Below are positions 20,707-38,688 of a stretch of DNA of 64,000 nt, one piece after another. The stretch comes from Phytoamicus setariae (GTDB lineage: Bacteria > Pseudomonadota > Alphaproteobacteria > Rhizobiales > Rhizobiaceae), in the NCBI RefSeq assembly GCF_016722925.1, contig NZ_JAEQNC010000003.1:1-64000 (forward strand), written 5' to 3'. The stretch's first letter is position 1; each line of letters starts with the position of its first letter. The position numbers were made by a program, and so were the translations under genes. The notes beneath the pieces are model-generated. The model was given only the letters and a program-made list of their open reading frames with translations. It searched no databases and was not told the DNA's origin.

Positions 20707-21177
20707 ATGGCAATCCGACACGGCAACAAGAACGACAACATCCTCAAGGGAACCAACCAGAACGATGAGATCGAAGGCAAGGGCGGCAACGACACGCTCT
20801 TCGGCTATGGTGGAAATGATGACCTCGAGGGCGATGCCGGCAATGACAAGCTATATGGCGGCGCCGGCAACGACGACCTGGAAGGCGGATCGGGCAGAGA
20901 CCTTCTCGATGGCGGCACCGGCCGGGACGATCTTGAAGGCGGCTTGGGCAACGATACTTTCATCTTCCGCAAAGGTCTGACCGAAATCGATGATTTCGGC
21001 GTTGGCAACGATCTTATCCGTATTGATGACGCGCTCGGCGTCGATACCTTCGCGGAACTGAAAGCAACAGCTCGAAATGTCGGCGAAGATCTGGTCTTCG
21101 ACTTCGGCAAGCACGAGCTACGCCTCGACGACACCAGGCTTGCAGACCTGAAGGCTTCGGATTTCGACTTCTTTTAG
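20707..21177 (+). CDS. Small RTX (hemolysin-type) calcium-binding protein
   Basis: A 156-residue protein made largely of GGxGxDxxx nonapeptides: about seven copies between residues 15 and 85 ([45 protein letters not shown] and so on), which form a calcium-binding beta roll. The C-terminal 70 residues ([22 protein letters not shown], ending [10 protein letters not shown]) resemble the terminal signal region of type I secreted RTX proteins. No N-terminal signal peptide is present, as expected for type I export; no secretion genes lie in the window. It is divergent from the PepSY operon. Confidence 0.88.
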
Positions 21178-23756: not shown

Positions 23757-25373
23757 TCATGTCGCCTTCAGCACGAAGCGCTGGATCTTGCCGGTCTGTG
23801 TCTTCGGCAATTCGGCGATGAACTTGATCGAGCGGGGATATTTGTAGGGCGCAATCGTCGCCTTGACGTGATCCTGCAGGATCTTGCGCGTCAGATCGTC
23901 GGCCGCTACACCGTCCACCAGCACGACATGTGCCTCGACGATCTGGCCGCGATCCGTATCGGACACGCCAATGACGGCACACTCCTTGACGTGGGCATGC
24001 GAAAGCAATGCGCCTTCCACTTCCGGCCCGGCAATATTGTAGCCTGACGATATGATCATGTCGTCCGACCGCGCGGCGAAATGAAAGAAACCCGCCTCAT
24101 CCTGGATGAAGGAATCGCCCGTCAGATTCCAGCCATCGCGGACATACTTGCCCTGCCTGTCGTCCGCGAGGTAGCGGCAACCGGTCGGGCCACGCACGGC
24201 AAGCCGGCCGACTGAACCGCGCGGCAATTCCCTCATCTCCTCATCGACGATCTTCGCCTCATAGCCGGTCACCGGCCGGCCAGTGGTGGCGGGCGCCATG
24301 TCCTCCAGCCGGTTCGAGATGAAGATGTGCAGCATCTCGGTCGCGCCGATTCCGTCCAGGATCGGCTTTCCCGTCTTTGTCGTCCAGGCCTCGAACACCG
24401 GCGCGGGCAGCGTCTCCCCCGCTGAGACGGCGATGCGCAAGGAGGAAAGATCGGCACCCTCCTCCATTGCCGCCAGCATGGCGCGATAGGCTGTTGGCGC
24501 GGTGAAACTGATCGTCGCGCGATATTTCTCGATGATTTCGATCATGTTCGGGGGCGAGGCATTTTCCAGCAAGGTCGCTGTCGCGCCAAAGCGCAGCGGA
24601 AACACCGCCAGCCCGCCAAGTCCAAAGGTAAAGGCAAGCGGCGGCGAACCGACGAACACATCGTCCGGCGTCACGCCCAGCACTTCCTTCGCATAGCCAT
24701 CCGCGATGATGAGGATGTCGCGATGAAAGTGCATCGTTGCCTTGGGCACACCAGTCGTGCCGGATGTAAAGCCGAGTAAGGCCACGTCGTCGCTGCCGGT
24801 TGCGATCGCCTCGAACCGCACTGGTTTGTCGAGCGCCACCCTGTCGAGTTCGGCATCGTGATTGGCTGTGCCGTCGAAGCCGACGACCTGCTTGAGAAAC
24901 CGGCTGTCTTTGGCACAGGCGATCATGTCATCCATCAGCCGCGTATCGCAAAGGGCAAGCGAAACCTCAGCCTTGTCAACAATTTGGGAAAGTTCCCCCG
25001 CCCGCAGCATCGGCATAGTATTGACGACGACTGCACCGGCCTTGGTGGCCGCCAGCCAGCAGGCGACCATGGCGGGATTGTTGGCAGAGCGGATCAGCAC
25101 GCGGTTGCCAGGCTTGACTCCATAGGTCTCGACCAGCGCATGGGCGAGCCGGTTCGTCCAGTCGGAAAGCTCCTTGTAAGTTCGACGCCGACCGTTGCCG
25201 ATCAACGCCACATGATCGCCGAAACCGCGTTCGACCTGCCGATCGGTCAGTTCGACACCGATATTCAGCCGCTCCGGGTAATCGAAGCCATCGAGAAGGA
25301 TATCCGGCCACTGGTGCGGCGGCGGAAGGTTGTCGCGCGCAAATGTGTCGGTATGTGCTGACGGTCCGAGCAT
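23757..25373 (-). CDS. Aryl-CoA ligase (2-aminobenzoate-CoA ligase-like)
   Basis: A 538-residue AMP-forming acyl-CoA synthetase. The opening TDTFARDNLPPPHQWPDILLD is typical of the 2-aminobenzoate/benzoate-CoA ligase branch. AMP-binding signature LLGFTSGTTGVPKATMHFHRD lies at about 194-214, DGIGATEMLHIF at about 338-349, the motif YVRDGWNLTGDSF near 428, and the C-terminal lysine in PKTQTGKIQRFVL. It would activate an aromatic or heteroaromatic acid. It is divergent from the catabolic operon at 25581 across a 207-base gap with a TetR-like palindrome, so it probably belongs to that pathway. The acid is unknown. Confidence 0.85.
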   Translation of the reverse strand: MLGPSAHTDTFARDNLPPPHQWPDILLDGFDYPERLNIGVELTDRQVERGFGDHVALIGNGRRRTYKELSDWTNRLAHALVETYGVKPGNRVLIRSANNPAMVACWLAATKAGAVVVNTMPMLRAGELSQIVDKAEVSLALCDTRLMDDMIACAKDSRFLKQVVGFDGTANHDAELDRVALDKPVRFEAIATGSDDVALLGFTSGTTGVPKATMHFHRDILIIADGYAKEVLGVTPDDVFVGSPPLAFTFGLGGLAVFPLRFGATATLLENASPPNMIEIIEKYRATISFTAPTAYRAMLAAMEEGADLSSLRIAVSAGETLPAPVFEAWTTKTGKPILDGIGATEMLHIFISNRLEDMAPATTGRPVTGYEAKIVDEEMRELPRGSVGRLAVRGPTGCRYLADDRQGKYVRDGWNLTGDSFIQDEAGFFHFAARSDDMIISSGYNIAGPEVEGALLSHAHVKECAVIGVSDTDRGQIVEAHVVLVDGVAADDLTRKILQDHVKATIAPYKYPRSIKFIAELPKTQTGKIQRFVLKAT

Positions 25374-25482
25374 ATCCTGGTTCCTCCCCTGCTGCCCTTC
25401 GGCTGCCGCATCGATGCTGGCCGCGACCTGACATTATCGCTACCCGCTCCTCCGGCAAAGCTCCTCACAAGCAAAGGAGTAA

Positions 25483-25497
25483 ACTAAACTGTTTAGT
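25483..25497. promoter_or_regulatory. TetR-type operator candidate
   Basis: Perfect palindrome ACTAAAC-T-GTTTAGT in the 207-base gap between the divergent CoA-ligase and dioxygenase genes. Size and base composition fit TetR-family operators, and the cluster encodes a TetR regulator at 29293. Confidence 0.6.
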
Positions 25498-25580
25498 AAA
25501 AAAAGTGCTTGAAGAATGAAATTTCCGTGCTAGCGTTTGGGGTGAGGAGCCCGAGACGAACGGGCATGGGAGGAATATCG

Positions 25581-26627
25581 ATGCTGCAGGAGCGGATCGA
25601 AGGGAAGTGGTTGGCTTCCTTTCGCAGGGTACTTGCGCTGAACGGAATAGGTCCGGGCACAAGCGCCATCATCATCGCGGAAACGCAATCGCGTCCCGTT
25701 CTCGTTCATCTGGCGGAACTTGCCTGCTACGATCTCGGCGCCGACTTCTCCATCATCACCCTGCCGACGCCGAAGCTCGATGCGCCGGTGCCCGTGCGCT
25801 CCACCGGTGCCTGCAAGGCGATCCGCGGCATGCGGCACGTCATCGAGGCACTCAAGGCCGTCGAGATCGTTGTCGATGTCACGGTCGAAGGCCTGCTGCA
25901 TGCCCCCGAATGGCAGGAGATCGAAGACGCGGGCACGCGCCTGTTCGTCATCTGCAATGAACACCCGGAAATTCTCGAGCGGACCGAGCCGACGATCGAA
26001 CTTGCCGCCAAGGTCGAGCTCGGCATTGCTGCGCTCAAGCAGGCAAAGACGATGCGGGTCACCAGCCGCGCCGGCACCGACCTCACCATCGATGTGTCGG
26101 GCGCACCCTGTGGCGGCACGCCGGGTTTCACCACCAGGCCGGGTGGCGTCGCGCACTGGCCGGGGGGGCTGTGCCTCTGCTTTCCCGGCAAGAACACGAT
26201 CAACGGCCGCATCGTCATGGATGCCGGCGACCAGAACCTGACCTTCAAGACGTTCCTCAGGGATCGCGTCATCCTCGAGGTCCGCAACGATTATGTCACC
26301 GAGATCATCGGCGACAATCTCGACGCAGAACTGACCCGCGAATACCTCGCGGCCTGGAACGATCCAGTCGCTTACGGCTTCTCGCATGTCGGCTGGGGCG
26401 TCAATACGGGCGCCAAATGGGTCTCCATGGCGCTCTACGACAAGCGCGACATGCAGGCGACCGAGTTTCGTGCCTTTGCCGGCAGCTTCCTGTTTTCCAC
26501 CGGCGCCAACCAGTATGCCGGCCGCTTCACCGAGGGCCATTTCGATTTCCCGCTCCGAAACTGCACCATTACCCTCGATGACGAGGTCGTGGCCAGGGAC
26601 GGCATTTTGCAAGGACGTTTCGCATGA
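25581..26627 (+). CDS. NicX-like (2,5-dihydroxypyridine 5,6-dioxygenase family) protein
   Basis: A 348-residue protein. The ATG at 25581 is chosen because GGGAGGA lies 6 bases upstream; the open frame extends to 25509. It belongs to the group often labelled leucyl aminopeptidase (M29-like) that includes NicX, an iron ring-cleaving dioxygenase of 350 residues. The iron ligands of NicX (His265, His318, Asp320) have clear counterparts here: His269 in GFSHVGWG and His320 with Asp322 in TEGHFDFP. It therefore probably opens a hydroxylated, perhaps N-containing, ring. Its stop overlaps the next ATG by 4 bases. Confidence 0.75.
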   Translation: MLQERIEGKWLASFRRVLALNGIGPGTSAIIIAETQSRPVLVHLAELACYDLGADFSIITLPTPKLDAPVPVRSTGACKAIRGMRHVIEALKAVEIVVDVTVEGLLHAPEWQEIEDAGTRLFVICNEHPEILERTEPTIELAAKVELGIAALKQAKTMRVTSRAGTDLTIDVSGAPCGGTPGFTTRPGGVAHWPGGLCLCFPGKNTINGRIVMDAGDQNLTFKTFLRDRVILEVRNDYVTEIIGDNLDAELTREYLAAWNDPVAYGFSHVGWGVNTGAKWVSMALYDKRDMQATEFRAFAGSFLFSTGANQYAGRFTEGHFDFPLRNCTITLDDEVVARDGILQGRFA

Positions 26628-27988
26628 ACCAGCACGCACATGACGCACAGATGCACCGCGCAGCGATCTCCGAGGCAGGCAACATGAGTTTCTCGAACTA
26701 TTACGATCTCGAATGTCTTTCGAGCGATCTTCGTACGATGATGGAAAAGGCCAATCTGCTGGGGCGCGAAGGCTTCGCCGCCCGCGCTTTTGCCCATGAC
26801 CGGGACGCCTCCTTCCCGACCCAGAATTATGATGATCTCCGCGCGCATGGCTTCCTGAAACTGGTCGTACCGAAGGAATTCGGCGGCTACGGATTCACGG
26901 TCGGGGAATACGCGACAGTGGCCGCGGAAATCGGCAAGTATTGCGGTGCGACCGCGCTGACTTTCAACATGCATACATCGGCCATGCTGTGGTCGAACTT
27001 CATGTTCGACATGCCCGATCTGACCGAAGAGGAACGCACGGCCTTCGCCCGGATGCGCGAACGCCAGTTCCGGCGTGTCGTCGAGGAAGGCGCGATCTAT
27101 TCCCAACCGATCTCGGAAGGCGGACAGAACTGGACCTCCAAGCCAATCCAGACCAACTGCCGAAAGGTCGACGGCGGCTATCTGATTAACGGCTTCAAGA
27201 AGTTCGCGTCGCTGGCCGGAAACTGCGACTACTATTGCATCGTCTGCACAGAGCATTTCGCGGGCATCGAACCCCGCCACGAAGACACGATGATCTTTGC
27301 CGTGCCGAAGGATGCGCCCGGCCTCACGGTGGTCGGCGATTGGGATCCGATCGGCATGCGTGGAACCGTATCGCGCGATCTCATTCTCAAGGATATTTTC
27401 GTCACCGACGAGGACTTGATGATGCCGCGCGGCGTGTTTTCCAAGACACTGCCGAACTGGCCGCACATGATGGCGCTGCTTTCTCCGACTTACATGGGTG
27501 TCTCGCAGGCGGCTTACGATTACACCGTCGCCTATCTGCGCGGTGAAGCCGAAGGCAAGGGCATCGACCGCCGGATATACCCGACCAAGCGGATTGCCGT
27601 CGGGCGGATGTACCAGAAACTGATGGAAATGCGCTCGCTCTGGCACCGTGCGATGATGGAAGCCAAGGCTTACCCTTCCAAGGCCGAAGTGATGCGCCTC
27701 TACGCCGCGCAATATGCTGTCATGGAAGGCGTACAGGAAATGACCGCGCTGGCGATCCGGACCTGCGGTGGGCAGTCCATGCTCAAGAGCCTGCCGCTGG
27801 AGCGGCTTTACCGCGACAGCCGCTGCGGCGCGCTCATGCTGCCCTACACCTCCGAAATCATGGAGGACTACCTGTCGGTGCTGACGCTCTATGACATGGA
27901 CGAAATCGACAATGTCGGCACCGATACGGAATCCGCCCGCACCTCGCTCTGGCGTGGCGGGCACGGATCCTCCAAGGCCCTGCGCTGA
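26624..27988 (+). CDS. Acyl-CoA-dehydrogenase-fold flavoprotein, probable two-component monooxygenase
   Basis: A 454-residue protein with the three-part acyl-CoA dehydrogenase layout: N-terminal helical domain (LRAHGFLKLVVPKEFGGYGF), beta domain (AIYSQPISEGGQNWTSKPIQ and GFKKFASLAG), C-terminal helical domain (LAIRTCGGQSMLKSLPLERLYRDSRCGAL). The segment that carries the catalytic Glu in most dehydrogenases (YEGTSEI) reads LPYTSEI at 406-412, so that Glu is replaced by Pro407. Loss of this base is seen in flavin monooxygenases of the same fold (HsaA, DszC). A flavin reductase is encoded in the same operon. I infer hydroxylation of an aromatic or heteroaromatic substrate. Confidence 0.7.
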   Translation: MNQHAHDAQMHRAAISEAGNMSFSNYYDLECLSSDLRTMMEKANLLGREGFAARAFAHDRDASFPTQNYDDLRAHGFLKLVVPKEFGGYGFTVGEYATVAAEIGKYCGATALTFNMHTSAMLWSNFMFDMPDLTEEERTAFARMRERQFRRVVEEGAIYSQPISEGGQNWTSKPIQTNCRKVDGGYLINGFKKFASLAGNCDYYCIVCTEHFAGIEPRHEDTMIFAVPKDAPGLTVVGDWDPIGMRGTVSRDLILKDIFVTDEDLMMPRGVFSKTLPNWPHMMALLSPTYMGVSQAAYDYTVAYLRGEAEGKGIDRRIYPTKRIAVGRMYQKLMEMRSLWHRAMMEAKAYPSKAEVMRLYAAQYAVMEGVQEMTALAIRTCGGQSMLKSLPLERLYRDSRCGALMLPYTSEIMEDYLSVLTLYDMDEIDNVGTDTESARTSLWRGGHGSSKALR

Positions 27989-28007
27989 CTCTGAGCAAGG
28001 CAATCCG

Positions 28008-29300
28008 ATGACCGATACGCCAGCCGAGACAAGCCCCGCAATCCAGGTCCAATGCACCGAATGGATCGATGCGCCAGCGGATCTCGTCTGGACCGTGGTC
28101 GGCGACTTCGGTTCGGGTTGGCATCCAGCAATGGAAACATGCCGGCTCGAAATGACCAATGGGGCGGCAGAGCGCGTCTTCACCGTTGCCGGCGTCTCGA
28201 CGGTGTTTCGGGAGAGAATGCTGTTTCACAGCGACACGGAGCGCATGCTGTCTTACCGCATGATGGCCGGCAGCACCGTTCTTGACCGCTATGACGCAAC
28301 GGTTCGCGTCGTCGCCGATGGGGATGGCGCCAAAGTCGTCTGGAGCGCAGTACTCGCGGGCCAGGATCCGGACGCCGTCGCCGAAAGTGCGTCCGAGACA
28401 CGCGAGATATTTGCTGCTGGACTCGGCTTCCTGAAGCATCGCATCGAAATGCGCAGCCTTGTAGCCGAACTGCCCCACCGGATCGGCCAGCTGTCGGCCG
28501 GCGAAGGCGAGCTGGTGCTGTTCCTGCACGGCATCGGCGGGCGCAAGGAAAACTGGCGCCAGCAGATCCAGGCGCTCGCACCTCATGCACATGCCGTTGC
28601 CTTGGACCTTCGTGGATACGGCGAGAGCGATCTGGCTTTTGGCGAACTGAGGCTCGAAGATCATTTCGCCGACATCCATGCAGTCATGGCCGCTTACGGC
28701 GTCGAACGCGCCCATCTCGTCGGCATGTCCTACGGCAGCTGGATGGCCGCAAGTTTTGCCCATGCCTATCCGGATCGAGTGACAAGCCTTCTGCTGAGCG
28801 GCGGCTGTACCGGCATGTCCGAGGCCGAACCGGAAACGGTGCGGGCCTTTCGCGAGGCGCGCGAAGCGCCGCTCGACCGGGGGCTGACGCCAGCAGATAT
28901 CGCGCCGGATGTCGTGCGCATGTTGAAAGGGCCGCAATGCCCGCCGACAGCGGAGGCGGAACTGCTTGCGTCGATGAGCGCCATTCGGCCGGAAGCCTAT
29001 CGCGCTGCGGTCCGGTGCTTCACGTCGCCGCCCTTCCGGCTCGATTTTGCGCGCTTCGTCATGCCCGTGCTGATGATGACGGGAGAGCACGATCGCCTGG
29101 CGCCACCTGCGGAAATTTCCGGCGTGGCAAGGCGCATCGCAGCAGCCCGAGCCATGCACAAGTCTCCAGCGGAAGTACGGTTCGAAGTCTTGCCTGGGGC
29201 AGGTCATCTCTGCAATCTGGAGGCGCCCGAAAGCTATAACCGGCTTTTGACGGGATTTCTTTCCTCGCACCTCAGTAAGGCGGAGGCTCACATTGACTAA
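28008..29300 (+). CDS. SRPBCC domain fused to alpha/beta hydrolase
   Basis: A 430-residue fusion starting at the ATG at 28008, 19 bases after the flavoprotein stop. Residues 1-150 look like an SRPBCC/polyketide-cyclase-type ligand pocket ([27 protein letters not shown]). Residues 155-425 are an alpha/beta hydrolase: oxyanion region HGIGG at 174-178, nucleophile Ser241 in GMSYGS, Asp362 in GEHDRL and His400 in GAGHLCN. NicD-type deformylases and enol-lactone hydrolases share this hydrolase form, which fits a step after ring cleavage. The N-terminal fusion is unusual and may bind or tautomerise the substrate. Confidence 0.8.
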
Positions 29301-30003
29301 ACAGCCAGGCAAATCGGCCGCCAAACGTGGCCGCATCCTTGATGCTGCCTTCGAAATCTTTGCCGCACGCGGCTTCTCCGGCGCGTCCATGGACGAGATC
29401 GCTAAACTGGCGGAGGTCTCCAAACCGACGCTCTACACCTATTTCGGTGACAAGGAAGGCCTGTTCACCGCCCTGCTCGACCTGCAGAAGGCCGATCTGC
29501 TCATCCCGTTCGAGCGGACAGAAGGCCACGACATGGTGGAGACCATGCTCGACTTTGGCATGAAATATGCCGTCTTTGCGCTGGATCCAAAGGTCATCGC
29601 TTTCGGCCGCATGGTCATTTCCGAAGCCGGGCGTTTTCCCGGCATCGGCCGGCTCTACCTGGAAGCGGGACCCGATCGGGCGCTCAACGGGATCGTCCGG
29701 TACATGGATGCGATGCGCGAGCGCGGCCGTCTGGCCTTCGATGACCACGAACTGGCGGCAGACGACTTCTGGTCACTGATCCTGTCGACGCCGCGCGGCA
29801 AGGCCCATCTGCGTCCGGAGCTGACATTCGAGGAGCTGCAGCCCGAACGCCACGTCATCAACGGCATCAGGGTGTTCCTGAAGGCCTACTCCACCAATGC
29901 CGAAGCCGACCTCGCCCTGCTGGGCCGGCTCAGCGAAGACCAATCAAGAATCAAGTTCATCGGGAGGGAACATGAGCGAACTGGAAAGCCTGCTGGAGGA
30001 TAA
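29293..30003 (+). CDS. TetR-family transcriptional regulator
   Basis: A 236-residue regulator. It starts with TTG at 29293, overlapping the end of the hydrolase gene by 8 bases. HTH residues about 12-58 read [49 protein letters not shown]. The C-terminal ligand domain has the form seen in AefR-like repressors ([24 protein letters not shown]). It lies within the operon and its end overlaps the next gene. It probably represses the divergent promoters at the palindrome 25483-25497 and is released by a pathway substrate or intermediate. Confidence 0.88.
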
Positions 30004-31324
30004 GCACTGCCAATTCGCCACGATCGCGGCATCGGATACGAATGGCTTCCTTCGGGGCCAGCTCGTATCGCGCAAGGCGGTTTTGTCGATCGCGGAAAGC
30101 GGCATGGGGATGTCGCCCGTCACACTGGCGCTTGATCCGACGGATGTGGTGCTCCCGATGCCGGGGGTGTCGGATGACAACTCGGATTTCCATGACGCCA
30201 AGCTGCGTCTCGATCCGGGCTCCTGGCGTGAAATCCCCTGGCATGGCCAAGGCAAGCGCCTGCTGTTCCTGGCCGATTTCGATGGTGGCGAGGCGGCCAT
30301 CTGCCCCCGCGCCCTGCTCAAGAAAATCATCGCCGAGGCGCATGCCGAGGGTTTTTCGCCCAAATATGGGTTGGAGCTGGAATACACCCTTTTCAACGAG
30401 ACGCCGCAGTCGGCCAAGGACAAGGGCTACCGCGACCTGACACCCGCCACCACATTCGCCAGCCACGATCTCGTTCTCTACCAGAGCACGCAGAGCGAGT
30501 GGTACGATGCGCTGATCGACATGTGCGCCGATCTCCGGATCGATCTCTACAAGGCGCATGAGGAAATCGGCGCGGGCTTCATGGAAGTCTGCATCGGGGC
30601 GGGACGCGATCTCGGCCCGGCCGATCAAGCCGTCGTCCTCAGAACATTCCTCAAGGCTCTGGCAATCCGCAACGGCAAGATGGTGACCTTCATGCCGCGC
30701 TGGAGCGAGGCCGCCGACAGCCAGTCGACGCATATCCACCTTTCGCTGGTCGACAAAACCACAGGCAAGCCACTTTTCTGGCGGGAGGGCGACCCACGCA
30801 ACATGTCGCCACTGTTCCGGCATTTCCTCGGCGGTTTGCAGGCCTATCTCGGCGACCTGATGCTGATCTTCGCGCCGAGCGTCAATGCCTATCGCCGTTT
30901 TGCGCCGGGTACGTTTGCGCCGCCGTCGCTGAACTGGGGCTATGAAAACCGCACCGCGAGCTTGCGCGTGGTCGGCGACGATCCAGGCTCCCTGCGTTTT
31001 GAAAACCGGCTGCCGGGCTCGGATTCCAACCCCTACCTTTCGACGGCCGCGACGCTTGCCGCTGGCCTTGCCGGCATCCGCGGGAAGATCGAACCGCGCG
31101 AGGAGCTTCTCGGAAACGGTTATGCACAGGAGATCGATCCTGCCCTTCTGTTTCCGCGCACCATGCACGAAGCGATCGATCGCTTCCGCAATTCGGCCTT
31201 CGCTCGAAAGGCGCTCGGGGACCGCTTTGTCGAGAGCTTCGCGGCGACCCGGCAGGCGCAATTGGACGAGTTTGCCAGAAAGGTGCCCGACGTGGAGCTT
31301 GCCCGGTTCTTCGAACTCGGCTGA
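29972..31324 (+). CDS. Glutamine-synthetase-like gamma-glutamyl ligase
   Basis: A 450-residue protein starting at the ATG at 29972 behind GGGAGG and overlapping the TetR stop by 32 bases. The GS fold is clear: metal ligand motif [30 protein letters not shown], and the ATP/ammonia region [29 protein letters not shown]. Sequences of this type include PuuA and IpuC, which join glutamate to an amine rather than ammonia. In a catabolic operon with no other nitrogen genes, amine capture by gamma-glutamylation is more likely than nitrogen assimilation. The amine is unknown. Confidence 0.82.
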
Positions 31325-31341
31325 CAACAAGGAGGACGCGC

Positions 31342-32502
31342 ATGATCATGCAACCCATCCAGACCGAACTGCGCCAGCTGTTCGTCGAGGGCATGAGCAG
31401 GGTGGCATCGGCCGTCACTGTCGTCACCACGGATGGCGAGGCCGGTCGACACGGGGTCACCGTCAGTTCGATGACCTCGGTTTCGGCCGACACGACCAAG
31501 CCGTCGCTGCTGATCAGCGTGCACCACCTGAGCCCGGCCTGCGAAGCGATCCGCAAGAACGGCCGCTTCTGCGCCAATGTGCTGAGCGGCAGCCAGAGTG
31601 GACTGTCCGACCTGTTTTCGGGCCGACTCAAGCCGGAAAGCGGCGACAGGTTTGCCGAGACGGCCTGGCATGCCGGGGCAACCGGCGCCCCGGTGATCGA
31701 GGGGGCCATCGTTTCCTTCGATTGCGCGCTTCGCACCGCGCTCGTCTGGGGCACGCATTGCATCTTCATCGGCGAAGCTGAGAACATTGAAATGTCCGAG
31801 CAGCGCTCGCCGCTCGTCTATGCCAATCGCGGCTACCGGCGGGCGGTACCCATCGCGACCCCAGAGCAGGCGGTTCCAGTCGTTGAAGAAGAACTGCGCG
31901 TCGGCTTTTTCATGACGCTAGCACCGCAATTCCTTCCGTCGCTGATCGCCGAGTTCTCCAGTCTACATCCGACCACCGGCATACGGCTGCTCGAAACGGA
32001 TCACGAGGATCTCGTCGAGCAATTGCGCGCCGGGCGCATCGACGCCGCGATCAGCTACCGGCTGGCCATGCCTGCGGACCTCTCGATCGAGACACTGCGC
32101 CGGGCGCAGCCGCATGTCCTGCTGCCAACCGATCATCTCCTGGCCGCAAGCGCCGGGCTCGGCGTTGCGGATCTTGCCGACCTGCCAATGGTTCTGCTCG
32201 ATTATCCATCGGTGCGAACCGCTATCAACGCCCTGTTCCAGCGGCATGGCCATAAACCCGCGATCCGCTTTCAGTCACCCTCTTTCGAGATGGTGCGGGC
32301 ACTGGTCGCGCATGGTCTGGGCTATTCGATCGCGCCGCATCTTCCCAGCGATCTGGCCTCTCCGGACGGCAAGCAACTGGTGGCGATCCCGCTGATGGAA
32401 ACATTTGCCGAGGCCGACATCGTCGTCCTGCTTCGGCCCGGCACCAAGCTGGCGAGCACCATGGACGCCTTCCTATCACAGTGCAGAAAACTCATTGAAT
32501 AA
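31342..32502 (+). CDS. Flavin reductase fused to a LysR-type effector-binding domain
   Basis: A 386-residue fusion. Residues about 8-170 form a flavin reductase of the HpaC/NtaB type (FVEGMSRVASAVTVVTTDGEAGRHGVTVSSMTSVSAD and PSLLISVHHLSPACEAI, RFCANVLS). Residues about 185-386 match the substrate-binding domain of LysR regulators (LRVGFFMTLAPQFLPSLIAEFSSLHPTTGIRLLETDHEDLVEQLRAGRIDAAISYRL), but no helix-turn-helix is present. It can supply reduced flavin to the monooxygenase at 26624. By analogy with the Acinetobacter 4-hydroxyphenylacetate hydroxylase reductase, whose MarR-like tail gates activity, the added domain may sense substrate. This function is inferred. Confidence 0.82.
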   Translation: MIMQPIQTELRQLFVEGMSRVASAVTVVTTDGEAGRHGVTVSSMTSVSADTTKPSLLISVHHLSPACEAIRKNGRFCANVLSGSQSGLSDLFSGRLKPESGDRFAETAWHAGATGAPVIEGAIVSFDCALRTALVWGTHCIFIGEAENIEMSEQRSPLVYANRGYRRAVPIATPEQAVPVVEEELRVGFFMTLAPQFLPSLIAEFSSLHPTTGIRLLETDHEDLVEQLRAGRIDAAISYRLAMPADLSIETLRRAQPHVLLPTDHLLAASAGLGVADLADLPMVLLDYPSVRTAINALFQRHGHKPAIRFQSPSFEMVRALVAHGLGYSIAPHLPSDLASPDGKQLVAIPLMETFAEADIVVLLRPGTKLASTMDAFLSQCRKLIE

Positions 32503-32529
32503 ACAACGAACTTCGGAGGGGAAGTCACA

Positions 32530-33726
32530 ATGACGTTTCAGAAAAGCCAAGAAAATCCAATCGACAAGACATCCGTCTATGTCGCCGCCGGACTGATATC
32601 CGCCGCCGGCGCATTGCTTCTCAACGTGTTGCCGGTTCTGTTCGGGACGCTGGCGGAGGCGTTCGGCCTGGGAGAGGCCGAGCTCGGAAATCTGGCCTTC
32701 AGCGCCAATATCGGCTTTGCGCTGCTCGGCATCATCTCGCTCGCCTGGGTGCGCAAGACAAGCTGGCGGACCATTTCGATCATCGCGTCGGCCGTGGTCA
32801 CGCTGGCCATCCTCTACATCTGGACCAAGCCATCCTACGGCGGATTGCTCGCGGCCATGGCAGTTGCCGGTGCTGGCACCGGCGCGCTCTACGCGCTTGC
32901 CATGGTGATTTTCGGCGACAGTTCGCAGCCGGAACGCGCCTATGGCTTCAAGCTCGGCATGGAAACGCTGCCGGGCGTGGTGCTGCTGGTGCTGCTGCCG
33001 GTCGTCATTGCGCCGGCATGGGGTTTCGGTGGCGTAATGATCACGCTGGCGCTGGCCGCTGTCCTGATGGGCATCGTGCCCTTGCCATGGGTTCCGGCTC
33101 GCGGTCTCGACCGTTCGGGTGACGCCTCCCCGACGCACGATCACGTTCCGCACGGCTCTGCTTCAACGACCGTCTGGCTGAGCCTGCTCGCCAGCCTTAT
33201 CTTCCTGATGGGTATCATCGCGATCTGGGCGTTCCTCGAACTTATCGGCAAGCAGACAGGGCTTTCGTCGGATACGATCGGCATGGTCCTTTCAGCCGGC
33301 TTCTTCGTCAACGCCATTGGCGGTTTCATCGCAGCCGGACTGGGCCTCAAGGTCGGCCGTATCACGCCGGTGGTTATTGTCATCGCGGCGGAACTTCTCG
33401 GCCTCGTATTGATCGGGCAATTCGCTTCCGTCACCACATTTGCAGTCGGTGTGATGCTGTTTCTGTTCTCGATCAACTTCGTGCTCGCCTACACATTCGG
33501 CCTGATGGCGGAATACGACCTTTCGGGCAAGCTCGTGGCGCTGGGTTCCGTATGCCTGTCGCTTGGCGGCGCGCTCGGTCCAATGATTTCCGGTAACATC
33601 ATCGAATCCTCTGGATATACGGCCGCGCTGGTCTTTTCCGGTGGCTGCTCGTTGGTGGCGCTTGCCATCTACGCCTCACTGGCACGACGGGCTAGCCAGC
33701 TGACGCTCGCGCCCTCGCAACCCTAA
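32530..33726 (+). CDS. MFS transporter
   Basis: A 398-residue membrane protein with about twelve hydrophobic segments (first: VAAGLISAAGALLLNVLPVLFGTL). Topology and length are those of major-facilitator uptake or efflux proteins. The ATG follows GGAGGGG. It is the last gene of the operon starting at 25581 and probably carries the pathway substrate or a product. The direction of transport cannot be read from the sequence. Confidence 0.85.
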   Translation: MTFQKSQENPIDKTSVYVAAGLISAAGALLLNVLPVLFGTLAEAFGLGEAELGNLAFSANIGFALLGIISLAWVRKTSWRTISIIASAVVTLAILYIWTKPSYGGLLAAMAVAGAGTGALYALAMVIFGDSSQPERAYGFKLGMETLPGVVLLVLLPVVIAPAWGFGGVMITLALAAVLMGIVPLPWVPARGLDRSGDASPTHDHVPHGSASTTVWLSLLASLIFLMGIIAIWAFLELIGKQTGLSSDTIGMVLSAGFFVNAIGGFIAAGLGLKVGRITPVVIVIAAELLGLVLIGQFASVTTFAVGVMLFLFSINFVLAYTFGLMAEYDLSGKLVALGSVCLSLGGALGPMISGNIIESSGYTAALVFSGGCSLVALAIYASLARRASQLTLAPSQP

Positions 33727-33819: not shown

Positions 33820-35010
33820 CTATATGCTGCTGTCGAGAAACCGGTGGGCCATGCGCATGGCGCCCCGGAGTTCGGCGAGTCCCTTGAGACGGCCAATCAG
33901 TGAATAGCCTGGGTTGATCCGCGACTTGCCGATATCATCGGCGAGCAGATGGCCGTGATCGGGCCGCATCGGGATTTTCCAGTCACTTCGTCCCTCGCGC
34001 CGACGGCGGAGTTCTTCCCGGGTCAGAGCGATCACCACCGCTTCCATATCCGTGGAGCCATCGAGATGATCCGCCTCATAGAACGAACCATCCGGCTCCA
34101 GCGTCACATTGCGAAGATGGGTAAAATGGATGCGGCTTGCGAACTCCTCTACCATAGCCGGCAGGTCATTGTCCGGTCGCGCGCCAAAGGAACCGGCGCA
34201 GAACGTCAATCCGTTTTCCCGAAGATCGACCGCCGCCAGGATTGCCCGTGCGTCTGCCGCCGTAGACACCACCCGCGGCAGGCCAAACAGTGAAAACGGC
34301 GGATCGTCGGGATGGATGCACATGTTGACGCCGCATTCCGCGGCGACCGGGATGATCTCGGACAAGAAGTCAAACAGGTTGGATCGCAACGCGTCGGCAT
34401 CGATGTCGCGATATTCGGCGAGTGCGGATCGGAATGCGGGCCGGTCGTAGACACGCTCGGTTGCCGGCAGCCCGGCAATCAGGTTCCTCTCGATCCGCTC
34501 TGCGGTGTCGTTATCCATGGCCTTGAAGCGCATTTCAGCTTCTGCCACACGGCCATTGTTGTAATCGTCGGCCGCATTGTGTCGTTCGAGGATGAAGATG
34601 TCATAGGCGGCGAAATCGACCGCATCGAACCGCAACGCATAACCAGTTGATGGCAGCCGGTACATGAGATCCGTGCGCGTCCAGTCGACCACCGGCATGA
34701 AATTGTAGCAAACCGTGCGAATTCCGGCTTCCGCCAGTGCGTGGATCGTCTGCTTGTACTGATCGATATAAACGCGCCGCTCGGGCGACCCGATTTTGAT
34801 CGAATTTTGCACCGGAATGCTTTCGACCACCGACCATGTCAGGCCGGCAGCTTCGATGGTCCTTTGATGTGCGGCAATTTCGGACGCCGGCCACGCCGAG
34901 CCGTCATAGATGTGGTGCAAGGCCGTGACGATGCCGGTGGCACCCGCCTGCCTGATGTGATCGAGCGGCACCGGATCCGTTGAACCATACCAGCGAAAAC
35001 ACTCCTGCAT
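33820..35010 (-). CDS. uxuA: D-mannonate dehydratase
   Basis: A 396-residue UxuA protein (D-mannonate to 2-keto-3-deoxy-D-gluconate, glucuronate branch). The ATG at 35010 is better spaced from GGGAGG than the ATG at 35013. The opening [34 protein letters not shown] is characteristic, as are [36 protein letters not shown]-like text ([15 protein letters not shown]), and [12 protein letters not shown] at the C-terminus, which carry metal-binding His and Asp residues. It is divergent from a FadR-type regulator. Confidence 0.95.
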
Positions 35011-35029
35011 CATGCGCCTCCCGTTTTAT

Positions 35030-35114
35030 TTGTTGGACCACAGTGCAAGATACTTTGCAATATCGCAGCGAGATAGGCAGAAGGATTGACAACTTTTGTG
35101 ATCCAGTCCAACAA
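35030..35114. promoter_or_regulatory. Inverted pair of regulator-site candidates at uxuA
   Basis: TTGTTGGAC at 35030-35038 and its reverse complement GTCCAACAA at 35106-35114 lie in the gap between uxuA and the divergent FadR-type regulator. The first is followed by CACA and the second is preceded by TGTGATCCA, so the flanks are also related. Probably operators for the adjacent regulator. Confidence 0.5.
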
Positions 35115-35148
35115 TTAGCCAGTTTATAGACCCAGCCAACGGGTAAGC

Positions 35149-35886
35149 ATGGAAACCATCGAAACGCCAGAGCCGAAGGATGTCCCGCGCGGCTCTGCCG
35201 TCGAGCGGCTGGTTGAAAGCGTGCAGGAAATGATAGCCGAGCGTGGCCTGGCTTTCGGCGACCCACTGCCAACCGAGCGGGAACTCGGGCAATTGTTCGG
35301 GGGTAGCCGCAACACCGTGCGCGAAGCGCTGCAATATCTGCGGGCTTACGGCATCATCGACATTAGGCCCAAGACCGGCGCGGTTCTAGCCAATCGGCAG
35401 AGCCACGCCGTTGCCCGGCTGATGACGCTTCACCACAAAATCTCGCCGGCCTCCTTCCGGGAGGTTCAAGGGTTTCGCAAGATTGTCGAGTCGGCAGCGG
35501 GCGAAGCGATAATCATGCGGGCGAACGAAGGCGATCTGCTGCGGCTGGAGCAAACAAACCGGCAACTGCTCGAATGCAGCGATGTTGAAGGGTCCGCCCA
35601 CCAGGATTTTGCGTTCCATGACTTGCTGGTCAGCCTTGCCGGCAACAGCGTGCTGCACGCTAGCTATCTATATCAGCACAATGCGATCCTCGACATCATG
35701 ACGCTCGGCAAGGAAAACCGCCCGATCAACGAGGCGACGTTCGATGCGCACCAGGAAATCATCGATGCACTAAGGGCGCGCGACCGTATCGCCTTTGCCT
35801 ATCTACTCAATCGCCATCTGGATTTCGGCATGCAGTTCGTAGAGGCGGAAAACCATTCACCGGGAGACATTGATGGCGGAGTTTGA
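35149..35886 (+). CDS. GntR/FadR-family transcriptional regulator (UxuR-like)
   Basis: A 245-residue regulator. The winged helix includes GLAFGDPLPTERELGQLFGGSRNTVREALQYLRAYGIIDIRPKTGAVL (about 34-80). An FCD ligand-binding domain follows (QGFRKIVESAAGEAIIMRA and FHDLLVSLAGNSVLHASY). FadR-group members next to uxuA usually respond to hexuronate intermediates. It is divergent from uxuA and overlaps the start of the SDR gene, so it may control both sides. Confidence 0.9.
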   Translation: METIETPEPKDVPRGSAVERLVESVQEMIAERGLAFGDPLPTERELGQLFGGSRNTVREALQYLRAYGIIDIRPKTGAVLANRQSHAVARLMTLHHKISPASFREVQGFRKIVESAAGEAIIMRANEGDLLRLEQTNRQLLECSDVEGSAHQDFAFHDLLVSLAGNSVLHASYLYQHNAILDIMTLGKENRPINEATFDAHQEIIDALRARDRIAFAYLLNRHLDFGMQFVEAENHSPGDIDGGV

Positions 35887-36658
35887 AGGTAAGGTCGCGC
35901 TGGTTACCGGAACGTCCGGTATTGGGCGCGCCTCAGCGCTGGAACTGGCAAGATCCGGCGCGCGCGTTCTATGCCTTGGTATAGACGACGGCGCCAATGG
36001 CGAGCTCACTGCGATCGGTAAAGCAGAAGGGTTCGATATCGTTGTCCGCAAAGCCGATGTCTCGCGGCCAGACGAAGTGCAGGCGGCAATCGTCACTCTT
36101 GAATCAGACTTCGGAGGGCTGGATATTATCGTCAATTCGGCGGCCATCCACCCCTATGGCACGGTCGTGGATACCGATCCCGAAGTGTTTCTGCGTGCCT
36201 ATGCGGTCAATGTCGGCTCCATCCAGCTTACCGCGCGCTACGGCATTCCGCTGATGAGAAAGCGCGGTGGCGGGGCGATCATCAATATCGCCTCGGTTCA
36301 GGGGCATGCGTGCCAGAAGAATGTCGCGGCCTATGTCGCGACCAAAGGCGCGATCCACGCGCTGACCCGTGCCATGGCCATCGATCATGCGAGCGACAAA
36401 ATCCGGGTGAACTCGGTCAGCCCCGGCTCGGTTCGCACCCCGATTCTGGAATTGGCCGCCCGGACGTTCGATGGCAACAATGCCGACATAGAGGATGTCT
36501 TCAAGCGATTTGGCGCCGCCCATCCCATCGGTCGGATCGGCGAGCCGGAAGAGATCGCAGCACTCGTTGCATTTCTTGCTTCCCGCCGCGCCGGCTTCAT
36601 TACAGGGGCCGACTACAGCATCGATGGTGGTCTACTGGCCGGACTGGGGGTGCAGTAA
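35873..36658 (+). CDS. SDR-family oxidoreductase
   Basis: A 261-residue short-chain dehydrogenase beginning at the ATG at 35873, within the end of the regulator gene; CGGGAG serves as ribosome site. NAD-binding loop TGTSGIGRASALELA, NSAAIHPYG, catalytic Ser in IINIASVQGH, Tyr-Lys in AAYVATKGAIHAL. The end (FITGADYSIDGGLLAGLG) is typical. With uxuA and the downstream sugar genes it probably oxidises or reduces a sugar, sugar alcohol or sugar acid; it could stand in for fructuronate reductase. Confidence 0.88.
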   Translation: MAEFEGKVALVTGTSGIGRASALELARSGARVLCLGIDDGANGELTAIGKAEGFDIVVRKADVSRPDEVQAAIVTLESDFGGLDIIVNSAAIHPYGTVVDTDPEVFLRAYAVNVGSIQLTARYGIPLMRKRGGGAIINIASVQGHACQKNVAAYVATKGAIHALTRAMAIDHASDKIRVNSVSPGSVRTPILELAARTFDGNNADIEDVFKRFGAAHPIGRIGEPEEIAALVAFLASRRAGFITGADYSIDGGLLAGLGVQ

Positions 36659-36793
36659 AGGCAGGGCGGCGAAATCGAAGGCAGCGGCATAGATGCGTTA
36701 TCTTGCGTTTTTACGCAGCTTTATGCGCTTTCAATATTGACATGCGGCACAAAAGCGCCGACGCTTATGGACGTCATCGCATGGGAGGTTCGC

Positions 36794-37867
36794 GTGAAGA
36801 AACAGGATCGGCAGCTCCGCGTCGGCGTGCTCGGCTGCGGACCGATCGCGCAGTTTGCGCATTTTGAATCGAGCACCAAAGCCCGCAATGCATGCCTCTA
36901 TGCCATCTGCGATGCAGCCCCCGATCTGGCTGCCCGGATGGGCGCGACTTACGAACCGGACAAGATATATTACGATTATGACGACATGCTTGCGGATCCC
37001 GCGCTCGAGGCGGTGATCATCGCCACATCGGATGCGTTTCATGTTCCTGCTGCCATCAAAGCCCTCGAAGCCGGCAAGCACGTGCTTTGCGAAAAACCGG
37101 TCGGCACAAACGTCGAGGAGGTCGAGGCGCTTGCCGAAGTGGTGCGCCGGAGCGGCAAGGTTCTGCAGATCGGCCATATGAAGCGCTTCGATCCCGGCAT
37201 CGAGGCGGCCAAGCAATTCATCGACGAGGAAATGGGCGCGCGCCTGGCGCTCAAGGCTTGGTATTGCGACAGCACCCACCGCTACACAATGACGGATGCC
37301 GTACAGCCGCTGCCTGTTCTCAGCAAGGCGGCACTGAAGCCTGCGGGCAATCCCAAGGCCGACCTCAAGCGCTACTACATGCTCGCGCATGGCAGTCATC
37401 TCGTCGATATTGCTCGCCATCTGTGCGGCGAGATCGAATGGGTACGGGCCCGCCTGCTCGAACGGTTCGGCGCCTATTGCTGGTTCGTCGAAACAGGATT
37501 TGCAGATGGCACTCTTGGCCATCTCGACCTCACCGTCGCCGTGCGGATGGACTGGCATGAAGGCTTCCAGCTCTATGGCGAGAACGGCAGCGTGCTCGCC
37601 AAGACCTATAACCCCTGGTACTACCGGTCGAGCGACGTCGAGATCTTCCGCGAGAAGACGGCCGCATACGAACGCGCGCTCGGCGCCGATGGCCACTTCT
37701 ATCGCCGGCAACTGGAGGGATTCGCAGACACCATCCTGGATGGCTCGCCGATGCGCGGCGCCGACATCGAGGACGGCCTTGCTTCGGTCCGGGCAATGGC
37801 CGCCATCGCGCGATCAGTGGAGACGGGAACAAGCGTCGACGTCGCATCGATGACCGGGGCGATCTGA
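36794..37867 (+). CDS. Gfo/Idh/MocA-family oxidoreductase
   Basis: A 357-residue NAD(P)-dependent sugar oxidoreductase. The GTG at 36794 is preferred since GGGAGG lies 5 bases upstream; the open frame reaches 36737. N-terminal Rossmann fold LRVGVLGCGPIAQFAHFES and the family motif GKHVLCEKPVGTNVEEVEAL (EKP lysine near residue 100). Members act on inositols, glucose or hexuronate derivatives. It overlaps the next gene by 1 base and is followed by three further coupled genes, forming one sugar-catabolic operon of unknown substrate. Confidence 0.88.
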   Translation: MKKQDRQLRVGVLGCGPIAQFAHFESSTKARNACLYAICDAAPDLAARMGATYEPDKIYYDYDDMLADPALEAVIIATSDAFHVPAAIKALEAGKHVLCEKPVGTNVEEVEALAEVVRRSGKVLQIGHMKRFDPGIEAAKQFIDEEMGARLALKAWYCDSTHRYTMTDAVQPLPVLSKAALKPAGNPKADLKRYYMLAHGSHLVDIARHLCGEIEWVRARLLERFGAYCWFVETGFADGTLGHLDLTVAVRMDWHEGFQLYGENGSVLAKTYNPWYYRSSDVEIFREKTAAYERALGADGHFYRRQLEGFADTILDGSPMRGADIEDGLASVRAMAAIARSVETGTSVDVASMTGAI

Positions 37868-38688
37868 TGCAGGTGGGGATCTTTGCCAAGACCTTTGCGG
37901 GCGCCGACCCGAAGACGGTGCTGTCTCATTCCGCTGCCGCCGGTTATGGCTGCGTGCAGTATAACTTCGCCTGCTCCGGTCTGGCCTCCATGCCGGATAC
38001 TGTGCCCGAAGAGGCCATGCACGCCATCGTGTCGGCAATGCAGGCGACCGGCATGGAGATCGCGGCACTTTCCGCCACCTACAACATGATCCATCCCGAC
38101 AGGTTGGTGCGCGAGGCAGGGATGGCACGGCTCGAGGTCGCGCTCAAGGCTGCGGCCCGGCTGGCGATCCCACTCGTCACCCTGTGTACCGGAACCCGCG
38201 ATTCCGACGACCAGTGGCGACATCATCCGGACAACGCCAGCGCGGAGGCTTGGCGCGATCTGGTCACGGAGATGGAGAGGGCAGCCGCAAAAGCTGAAGC
38301 GCTGGGCATCCATCTGGGCATCGAGCCGGAACAGGCCAATGTCGTGCAGGATGCGCAATGCGCCGTGCGGCTGATGCGCGAGGTGCCGTCGCAATCCCTC
38401 CGGATCGTGTTCGATCCCGCCAATCTGTTCGAACATGCGAGCCAGAACGAGGCGCGCAGTATCGTGACGCGATCCATCGATGTGCTGGCAGACCGCATCG
38501 CTATGGCCCACGCCAAGGACAGGGATGCGGCGGGACAGTTTGTCACTGCCGGTCAGGGCATAGTCGATTTTCCCGACTTGATTTCGCGGTTGAAGCAGGC
38601 CGGCTTCGACGGACCTGTCGTCACCCACGGACTTGAGGAACATGAAGCGCCGGAAGTCGCCCGCTTTCTGGCTGGACTCATCGCATGA
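37867..38688 (+). CDS. TIM-barrel sugar isomerase/epimerase (AP-endonuclease-2 family)
   Basis: A 273-residue xylose-isomerase-like barrel. Metal-site motifs typical of the family are seen: GIEPEQANV (Glu), RIVFDPANLF (Asp), MAHAKDRDAAG (His, Asp) and a late VVTHGLEEHE (Glu). Related proteins epimerise ketoses or dehydrate inositol derivatives. It overlaps its neighbours at both ends (4 bases with the hydrolase), so it works in the same pathway as the Gfo/Idh/MocA protein. Confidence 0.85.
   Translation: MQVGIFAKTFAGADPKTVLSHSAAAGYGCVQYNFACSGLASMPDTVPEEAMHAIVSAMQATGMEIAALSATYNMIHPDRLVREAGMARLEVALKAAARLAIPLVTLCTGTRDSDDQWRHHPDNASAEAWRDLVTEMERAAAKAEALGIHLGIEPEQANVVQDAQCAVRLMREVPSQSLRIVFDPANLFEHASQNEARSIVTRSIDVLADRIAMAHAKDRDAAGQFVTAGQGIVDFPDLISRLKQAGFDGPVVTHGLEEHEAPEVARFLAGLIA

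What the first reader, a model, noticed from the sequence alone, without database searches (positions are those of the whole stretch)
23757..33726. Unfamiliar catabolic cluster for an aromatic or N-heteroaromatic compound
Eight genes in two divergent units share one palindrome: aryl-CoA ligase; NicX-type ring-cleaving dioxygenase homologue; acyl-CoA-dehydrogenase-fold flavoprotein without the catalytic Glu; SRPBCC-hydrolase fusion; TetR; GS-like gamma-glutamyl ligase; flavin reductase with a LysR sensor domain; MFS transporter. Overlaps of 4, 8 and 32 bases tie the operon together. NicX plus an alpha/beta hydrolase recalls the nicotinate lower pathway, but the maleamate amidase, the hydroxynicotinate monooxygenase and the NicAB oxidase are absent, and CoA ligase, GS-like ligase and a two-component monooxygenase are extra. 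I know no described pathway with this set.
Basis: partly seen in the sequence, partly recalled or inferred. Interest (0 to 1): 0.88.

Follow-up and report, generated by a model that had tools for sequence, protein, structure and literature searches.

The report
Likely ring-to-anthranilate catabolic gene cluster
A bacterium of the Rhizobium family carries a conserved set of genes that probably breaks open a nitrogen-containing aromatic ring down to anthranilate, which the cell then burns; the exact starting compound is still unknown.

Summary
In detail: a divergent CoA-ligase gene and a seven-gene unit face each other across a perfect 15-bp palindrome, with the stated overlaps. Relatives share it: among 80 fetched loci all six core genes appear in 46 of the 70 long enough, and one of two operator forms lies upstream of the dioxygenase gene in 46 of 83.

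New: the ligase is most likely an anthranilate-CoA ligase. Orthologues sit with tryptophan dioxygenase, kynureninase and a 2-aminobenzoyl-CoA monooxygenase/reductase-type flavoenzyme; this genome has a second copy beside kynureninase. A paralogous module runs straight into such an operon. I read the cluster as an upper pathway: flavin hydroxylation, NicX-type ring opening beside nitrogen, hydrolysis to anthranilate, CoA activation. The substrate is inferred only as a bicyclic N-heteroaromatic, indole-type first, perhaps amine-bearing.

Main rival, about 0.15: the published homarine pathway, whose paper I could not read. No experiment was done. New variant of a known kind of pathway.

The parts
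23757..25373 (-). benzoate-CoA-ligase-family AMP-binding enzyme; most likely 2-aminobenzoate (anthranilate)-CoA ligase
   Evidence: Best solved relative anthranilate-CoA ligase 4wv3, E 1.5e-83; TIGR02262 369.4 bits, just under its cut-off 375.25; orthologues (about 75-83%) in flavoenzyme operons or beside tryptophan dioxygenase and kynureninase
25483..25497 (.). 15-bp palindrome, probable TetR operator between the divergent units
   Evidence: Only match in the window at up to 2 mismatches; same form upstream of NICX in 15 further loci, a second form in 30 of 83 (post hoc patterns); binding not tested
25581..26627 (+). NICX: NicX/2,5-dihydroxypyridine 5,6-dioxygenase homologue, putative ring-opening dioxygenase (ATG at 25581; the ORF listing gave a longer TTG start at 25509)
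   Evidence: phmmer to 7cn3 E 1.4e-59; H269, H320, D322 invariant in 21 rows and aligned to H265/H318/D320
26624..27988 (+). ACAD: acyl-CoA-dehydrogenase-fold flavin monooxygenase, oxygenase component
   Evidence: Best solved relatives 5gj7 and 5z8t (5z8t is described as flavin-containing monooxygenase); Pro407 invariant where dehydrogenases have Glu (motif recalled)
28008..29300 (+). SRPH: N-terminal SRPBCC domain fused to C-terminal alpha/beta-hydrolase; putative N-acyl/N-formyl hydrolase
   Evidence: PF10604 and PF00561; S241, D362, H400 invariant in 25 rows; model pLDDT 88, esterase folds best
29293..30003 (+). TetR-family regulator (TTG start)
   Evidence: PF00440 and PF14246
29972..31324 (+). 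GS: glutamine-synthetase-like, putative gamma-glutamyl-amine ligase
   Evidence: PF00120 272 bits; TIGR03105 and NF045547 far below their cut-offs
31342..32502 (+). FRED: flavin reductase domain fused to a LysR-type substrate-binding domain
   Evidence: PF01613 and PF03466; fusion in 7 of 52 related loci with a reductase found
32530..33726 (+). MFS transporter, probable uptake
   Evidence: PF07690; other transporter families stand in relatives

Best explanation
The cluster is an upper pathway that turns a bicyclic N-heteroaromatic compound into anthranilate and hands it to the aerobic 2-aminobenzoyl-CoA pathway. Inferred steps: FRED supplies reduced flavin to ACAD, which hydroxylates the hetero-ring at the carbon next to the N-bearing carbon; NICX, a non-haem iron dioxygenase, cuts the C-C bond between those two carbons (on 3-hydroxyindole this would give N-formylanthranilate, as NicX gives N-formylmaleamate); the Ser-His-Asp hydrolase SRPH removes the N-acyl group and releases anthranilate; the divergent ligase makes anthraniloyl-CoA; the flavoenzyme and beta-oxidation-type genes on contig C34 finish it. 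The GS-like ligase would gamma-glutamylate an amine of the substrate or of an intermediate, as in aniline and putrescine catabolism. TetR would control both arms through the palindrome. Shown by sequence: gene families, conserved order, conserved catalytic residues, conserved operator-like motif, linkage and co-occurrence with anthranilate-CoA genes. Inferred: all reactions and the regulation. Substrate guess: indole-type first (about 0.45), then quinoline-type.
For: (1) Ligase orthologues lie in operons with a bifunctional flavoenzyme (NF006101, 1272 bits against cut-off 1078; NCBI's name for it is salicylyl-CoA 5-hydroxylase/oxidoreductase), SDR, MarR, enoyl-CoA hydratase, acyl-CoA dehydrogenase, thioesterase-like and RidA-type (L-PSP) genes. 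In Shinella (L176) the ligase is followed by tryptophan 2,3-dioxygenase (434 bits, cut-off 391) and lies near kynureninase (373, cut-off 246) and the flavoenzyme; a NICX-free relative (L178) has the same set. (2) The window genome has a second ligase on C36 beside kynureninase (304 bits), so the window copy looks dedicated to this cluster. (3) Ligase or flavoenzyme operon stands near NICX in several arrangements: divergent (window), downstream behind the permease (L023, L024, L056), beside or within the flavoenzyme operon (L063, L032, L018, L039). On a ligase tree the linkage needs 5 changes, 3 forced by well-supported branches; losses may be among them. (4) Type A NICX and the flavoenzyme co-occur: Rhizobiaceae 10 of 10 against 102 of 188 without type A; Rhodobacteraceae 9 of 12 against 55 of 167; Fisher p 0.003 and 0.005 (not corrected for phylogeny). 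Of 45 genomes chosen by me, the ligase was found in 16 of 16 with NICX and 21 of 29 without. (5) The paralogous type B module runs in one direction NICX, hydrolase, ACAD, ligase B, flavoenzyme, SDR, MarR, hydratase, dehydrogenase, ligase, RidA in L174 and lies beside the flavoenzyme operon in L164 and L168; class-wide 19 of 26 NICX-positive against 49 of 359. (6) A gentisate-dioxygenase-like cupin (23 of 82 loci), its flavin-reductase neighbour (25) and FAH and nitrilase-type genes lie near NICX; gentisate is another reported route for anthranilate (PMC4539516 and PMC6221969, passages). (7) Precedent: the quinaldine plasmid of Arthrobacter Rue61a carries its own anthranilate-CoA ligase beside chromosomal paralogues (PMC3534580, passages).
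Against: No substrate, product or activity was measured. Only 7 of 80 fetched loci hold the ligase within 10 kb of NICX (many loci are cut short). 3 of 12 Rhodobacteraceae with type A NICX lack the flavoenzyme at E 1e-200, as do 2 of 30 NICX genomes by handle at full length. Anthranilate also comes from kynurenine, so the flavoenzyme has a job without NICX (102 of 188 Rhizobiaceae without type A have it). 8 of 45 genomes have the flavoenzyme but no ligase at E 1e-200, two of them of the window's genus. The linkage label on the ligase tree is not clearly clustered (61 of 500 shuffles as low). The class-wide association rests almost wholly on type B. Indole itself has no amine, so GS is unexplained unless the substrate bears one; N-methylglutamate-synthase-like genes stand near NICX in five loci without core GS, which fits methylamine release. 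Homoprotocatechuate-type genes in 8 of 82 loci are not explained.
Confidence: 0.62

Rival explanations
1. The six-gene core is the homarine (N-methylpicolinate) operon reported in 2026: ACAD/FRED hydroxylates the pyridine ring, NICX opens it, SRPH deformylates, and GS assimilates the released methylamine.
For: The report exists (reference 55 of PMC13390433, which also says Mgd takes part in homarine catabolism; passages). From memory of its abstract only: operon homABCDER, i.e. five structural genes plus a regulator, as here, in Rhodobacterales, SAR116 and SAR11. NicX is a pyridine cleaver. N-methylglutamate-synthase-like genes stand near NICX in five loci that lack core GS. Rhodobacteraceae and a SAR116 contig are among the loci.
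Against: It does not explain the anthranilate-CoA-type ligase opposite NICX across one palindrome, nor flavoenzyme linkage and co-occurrence. All 35 class-wide hits lie in genomes of 2.5 Mb or more, so no SAR11-sized genome was hit (how many SAR11 genomes were sampled is unknown). Ruegeria pomeroyi draws homarine down (PMC12817926, passages), yet no Ruegeria title is among the 80 loci (best 80 of 119, so not exhaustive). Carriers include Shinella, Mesorhizobium and Gemmobacter, soil or freshwater genera by recall. GS scores 203 bits to its best solved relative and 105 to glutamate-methylamine ligase 9qur.
Confidence: 0.15
2. The product is anthranilate but the substrate is a quinoline-type compound (kynurenate, a 2-alkyl-4-quinolone, quinaldine-like), SRPH releasing an acid other than formate from an N-acylanthranilate.
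For: Quinaldine degradation ends in anthranilate and anthranilate-CoA ligase (PMC3534580, passages); the type B module carries a second CoA ligase that scores best, below cut-off, with long-chain-fatty-acid and o-succinylbenzoate ligase models and could activate the released acid; a tryptophan-dioxygenase-like gene lies in a type B locus (TIGR03036 173 bits, under its cut-off 391).
Against: In known quinolone cleavage the dioxygenase has the alpha/beta-hydrolase fold (recalled), not the NicX fold. Does not explain GS.
Confidence: 0.2
3. An ordinary nicotinate/picolinate-type pyridine pathway of the nic/pic kind in an unusual arrangement.
For: NicX homologue plus alpha/beta-hydrolase.
Against: No maleamate amidase, isomerase or NicC among the eight genes; NICX is 36-38% identical to proteins annotated as 2,5-dihydroxypyridine dioxygenase, whereas the 80 cluster loci are at 66-78%; ligase evidence as above.
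Confidence: 0.05

Closest known systems
NicX, 2,5-dihydroxypyridine 5,6-dioxygenase (7cn3/7cnt/7cup), nicotinate lower pathway
   Same: Homologous dioxygenase with the three aligned His/His/Asp residues, in an operon with an alpha/beta-hydrolase
   Different: 36-38% identity to annotated dioxygenases; different partners; exit apparently by anthraniloyl-CoA, not maleamate
iif/ind indole cluster (Acinetobacter, Cupriavidus)
   Same: Two-component flavin oxygenase plus reductase, anthranilate as product, aminobenzoyl-CoA pathway downstream in Cupriavidus (PMC6221969, passages)
   Different: No SDR among the eight genes; IifA was not searched by sequence; NicX-type enzyme and SRPBCC-hydrolase instead; GS-like ligase extra
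Quinaldine upper pathway of Arthrobacter sp. Rue61a
   Same: N-heteroaromatic to anthranilate with a dedicated anthranilate-CoA ligase on the same element (PMC3534580, passages)
   Different: Ring-cleaving enzyme of another fold (recalled)
Aniline operons (tdnQ/atdA1 GS-like, glutamine-amidotransferase-like)
   Same: GS-like ligase in an aromatic-amine operon (PMC4539516, passages), and in some relatives a class-I amidotransferase-like gene right after FRED (L032, L063)
   Different: No Rieske aniline dioxygenase among the eight genes; amine here unknown
hom operon for homarine (Ferrer-Gonzalez et al. 2026)
   Same: Recalled number of genes and part of the taxa
   Different: Gene content could not be compared; ligase/flavoenzyme linkage not expected for homarine

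Membership tests
2,5-dihydroxypyridine 5,6-dioxygenase (NicX) family | Homology and the three metal-binding residues | tested here: met
   E 1.4e-59; H269/H320/D322 align to H265/H318/D320 and are invariant; that they bind Fe is recalled
2,5-dihydroxypyridine 5,6-dioxygenase (NicX) family | Activity on 2,5-dihydroxypyridine | not testable with these tools
   needs enzyme assay
Nicotinate (nic) lower pathway | Maleamate amidase, maleate isomerase and NicC beside NicX | tested here: not met
   none among the eight genes; the rest of the genome was not searched for them
Anthranilate-CoA ligase of the 2-aminobenzoyl-CoA pathway | Homology and flavoenzyme (ACMR-type) operon partner among orthologues | tested here: met
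   TIGR02262 itself is just missed (369.4 against 375.25 bits)
Anthranilate-CoA ligase of the 2-aminobenzoyl-CoA pathway | Activity on anthranilate | not testable with these tools
   needs enzyme assay
iif/ind indole clusters | IifB-type SDR beside the oxygenase | tested here: not met
   no SDR among the eight genes
iif/ind indole clusters | Cofactor-free oxygenase IifA | not tested
   no IifA sequence at hand
Gamma-glutamyl amine ligases (PuuA, AtdA1, GMAS type) | Glutamine-synthetase catalytic domain outside the curated GS and PuuA cut-offs | tested here: met
   PF00120 above cut-off; TIGR03105, NF045547 and TIGR00653 below theirs
Gamma-glutamyl amine ligases (PuuA, AtdA1, GMAS type) | Ligation of an amine to glutamate | not testable with these tools
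   substrate unknown
hom operon (homarine) | Orthology to the published hom genes | not testable with these tools
   paper not held; no sequences at hand

The most novel reading that the evidence does not exclude
NicX-type dioxygenases are not only pyridine-ring enzymes: a pair of paralogous modules spread through Alphaproteobacteria (type A with a GS-like ligase and SRPBCC-hydrolase, type B with a second CoA ligase) uses a NicX-type enzyme to open the five- or six-membered N-ring of an indole- or quinoline-type metabolite beside nitrogen, giving an N-acylanthranilate and then anthraniloyl-CoA, with gamma-glutamylation of an amine-bearing substrate (tryptamine or serotonin-like) in type A.
Probability: 0.35. 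Interest if true: 0.75.

Novelty: new variant of a known kind. Interest (0 to 1): 0.6.

Why it matters
If right, it adds a non-pyridine branch to the NicX family, gives Alphaproteobacteria a route from an N-heteroaromatic (perhaps a tryptophan-derived signal) to anthranilate distinct from iif and from kynurenine, and offers a candidate (the gentisate-dioxygenase-like/amidase/FAH module) for the gentisate route of anthranilate, whose gene a 2018 review called not yet revealed (PMC6221969, passages). It makes the substrate question directly testable with one deletion strain and a small panel. If the homarine rival is right, it places that pathway in Rhizobiaceae and in Rhodobacteraceae genera known (by recall) from soil and fresh water.

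Tried and rejected
Nicotinate/picolinate pathway: rejected as best reading (missing partners; ligase evidence). Homarine operon: my first lead, kept as main rival; the paper could not be read by PMC id or DOI, and paper searches (listings) led only to a citation of it and to homarine uptake work (passages). Indole-3-acetate iac/iad-type pathway: considered from memory, not tested by sequence. Paper searches (listings only) showed no title or abstract that I read as describing this gene set; this covers only the held open-licence library. Structure searches gave family-level folds, no substrate hint: ACAD model (pLDDT 78) nearest 5z8t, SRPH model nearest 4uhc esterase. Dolichospermum plasmid hit (ACAD 49.5%): no catabolic neighbours annotated. 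Annotated plasmid regions: two had gene tables, two had none. A first ORF clustering was contaminated by wrong-frame ORFs and was replaced by a codon-model version. ORF calls in 64, 79 and 84 missed some genes; tblastn was used for counts. A first ligase tree had two rows labelled unlinked because their fragments did not reach NICX; it was rebuilt with the labels mended and the distant L174 row left out, and only the second is used. The genes around the flavoenzyme were first named by eye; one search checked them with Pfam.
Full report
Observation. The NicX-like protein matches no Pfam or NCBIfam model at E 0.001 and is known by its similarity to solved NicX. The acyl-CoA-dehydrogenase-fold protein has an invariant Pro407 where dehydrogenases carry Glu (motif recalled). 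In SRPH the triad S241/D362/H400 is invariant in 25 rows, so it looks like a working hydrolase.

Co-conservation. One scan of genome contigs gave 80 relatives (best 80 of 119 confirmed), at 66-78% identity to NICX. Among loci long enough to show each gene: ACAD 76 of 78, SRPH 74 of 75, TetR 67 of 72, GS 55 of 71, FRED 47 of 70, all six 46 of 70. By record titles they are mostly Rhodobacteraceae and Rhizobiales, with one SAR116 contig and some Gammaproteobacteria. The MFS gene and the LysR-domain fusion are not part of the core. In the window's own genome NICX is single, and the two other genomes of its genus in the sample lack it, so it is accessory there. Type A NICX was found in 10 of 198 Rhizobiaceae and 12 of 179 genomes of the Rhodobacteraceae-type family around G007.

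Operator. The window palindrome form occurs upstream of NICX in 16 of 83 loci (window included) and a second form, CTTWACT-N4-AGTWAAG, in 30 of 83, with no locus in both, mostly starting 28-62 bases before NICX (98 in the window); composition-shuffled upstream regions gave none (patterns chosen after inspection). A further motif, ATTTTCGAAAAT, stands upstream in 20 loci, 17 of which show the cupin module.

What the ligase is. Its best solved relative is an anthranilate-CoA ligase. In L063 a ligase orthologue lies in an operon with a bifunctional flavoenzyme (P0001, NF006101 above cut-off), SDR, MarR, enoyl-CoA hydratase, acyl-CoA dehydrogenase, thioesterase-like and L-PSP/RidA-type genes (Pfam; positions). 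A salicylate-hydroxylase-like half fused to an old-yellow-enzyme half is, from recall, the layout of 2-aminobenzoyl-CoA monooxygenase/reductase (ACMR); PMC4539516 and PMC3534580 (passages) describe that pathway. NCBI's own name for the model is salicylyl-CoA 5-hydroxylase/oxidoreductase; the L-PSP gene, tryptophan dioxygenase and kynureninase beside it argue for the amino compound. In Shinella (L176) the ligase is followed by tryptophan 2,3-dioxygenase and lies near kynureninase and the flavoenzyme; a NICX-free relative (L178) has the same set. The window genome keeps a second ligase (C36, 78% identical) beside kynureninase, and the flavoenzyme operon on C34 without a ligase in the 19 kb read. 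The window copy is therefore most simply a dedicated one, as on the quinaldine plasmid of Rue61a.

Tie to the NICX cluster. Ligase or flavoenzyme operon lies near NICX in the window, in Shinella (L003, L006, L084; flavoenzyme about 22-26 kb from NICX in G001/G172, G002 and G003), in Rhodobacter/Gemmobacter-type loci (L023, L024, L056), in L039 and in L063, L032 and L018. A tree of 20 ligases needs 5 gains or losses of NICX linkage, 3 forced by well-supported branches; the label is not clearly clustered. Of 30 NICX-bearing genomes given by handle, 28 have the full-length flavoenzyme (misses G014, first half only, and G026, second half only). Controls with genomes not chosen for NICX: Rhizobiaceae 10 of 10 type A genomes against 102 of 188 others; Rhodobacteraceae 9 of 12 against 55 of 167 (p 0.003 and 0.005). 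In 45 genomes that I chose, the ligase itself was found in 16 of 16 with NICX and 21 of 29 without. These are modest and not corrected for phylogeny.

Type B. At about 44-57% identity to NICX a paralogous module exists: NICX, a short hydrolase (no SRPBCC domain in the one scanned, L131), ACAD, another CoA ligase and often a flavin reductase, without GS. In L174 it runs in one direction into flavoenzyme, SDR, MarR, hydratase, dehydrogenase, ligase (52-53%) and RidA; L164 and L168 have it adjacent too. Class-wide, 19 of 26 NICX-positive genomes carry the flavoenzyme against 49 of 359 others (by score, all positives but the window's own are type B). This is the strongest sign that NICX-hydrolase-ACAD is chemistry ending in anthranilate; carrying it over to type A is inference by homology plus the ligase evidence.

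Other neighbours of type A, of 82 loci. A gentisate-1,2-dioxygenase-like cupin in 23, a flavin-reductase-like protein in 25 (either in 29), with FAH, nitrilase-type and FCD/GntR-type genes; it could serve the gentisate route of anthranilate, an amidase being what a 2-amino analogue of gentisate would need (inference). Homoprotocatechuate-type genes in 8 (HpaD above cut-off, HpaH-like just below its cut-off) and a pyridoxal-dependent decarboxylase (PF00282) in 3. A second GS-like gene in 9, eight of them with a P450 and a class-I amidotransferase-like gene; five of the nine lack core GS. N-methylglutamate-synthase-like genes in 5 (third subunit seen in 4), all five without core GS in view. The GS step is therefore about an amine, whose identity is open: a side-chain amine, an aromatic amine as in aniline degradation (PMC4539516), or methylamine.

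Mechanism and substrate. NicX cleaves between an OH-bearing carbon and the carbon next to N (recalled). On 3-hydroxyindole the same cut gives N-formylanthranilate, which a hydrolase turns into anthranilate: hydroxylase plus reductase, dioxygenase, hydrolase and ligase are then all accounted for. That makes an indole-type substrate my first choice, but the GS gene and the SRPBCC domain suggest something larger than indole. Quinoline-type substrates are next.

Main rival and verdict. The homarine operon must be compared directly; I could not. What I recall of its abstract matches gene number and some taxa; what I measured (ligase, flavoenzyme linkage and co-occurrence) does not call for homarine. 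Verdict: real, conserved, and not found described in the searches of the held library; a new variant of upper pathways that feed N-heteroaromatics into anthranilate.

Noticed in passing
L174:5070-18053 (also L164, L168; hydrolase and flavoenzyme in L175): Paralogous type B module (NICX, hydrolase, flavin monooxygenase, second CoA ligase) contiguous with an aminobenzoyl-CoA-type flavoenzyme operon.
   Followed up: partly
L083:7433-11883 and further loci (cupin in 23 of 82): FCD/GntR-type regulator with gentisate-dioxygenase-like cupin, FAH hydrolase, nitrilase-type hydrolase and flavin reductase upstream of NICX; candidate for a gentisate-type route of (hydroxy)anthranilate.
   Followed up: partly
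L005:6857-9998, L037, L045, L071, L076: N-methylglutamate-synthase-like genes near NICX in five loci without the core GS gene in view.
   Followed up: partly
L007, L010, L031, L034, L040, L053, L055, L065: P450 with a second GS-like ligase and a class-I amidotransferase-like gene, a gamma-glutamyl-amine type module, near NICX operons.
   Followed up: no
about 70-150 bases upstream of NICX in 20 of 83 loci (e.g. L083, L029, L052): Perfect palindrome ATTTTCGAAAAT, in 17 of these 20 together with the cupin module; perhaps the operator of its regulator.
   Followed up: no
window 33820-38688: Mannonate dehydratase gene divergent from genes that look by eye like GntR, SDR, Gfo/Idh and sugar isomerase: a separate sugar-acid cluster.
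   Followed up: no
window 20707-21177: Small protein that by eye consists largely of RTX-type glycine/aspartate-rich nonapeptide repeats.
   Followed up: no
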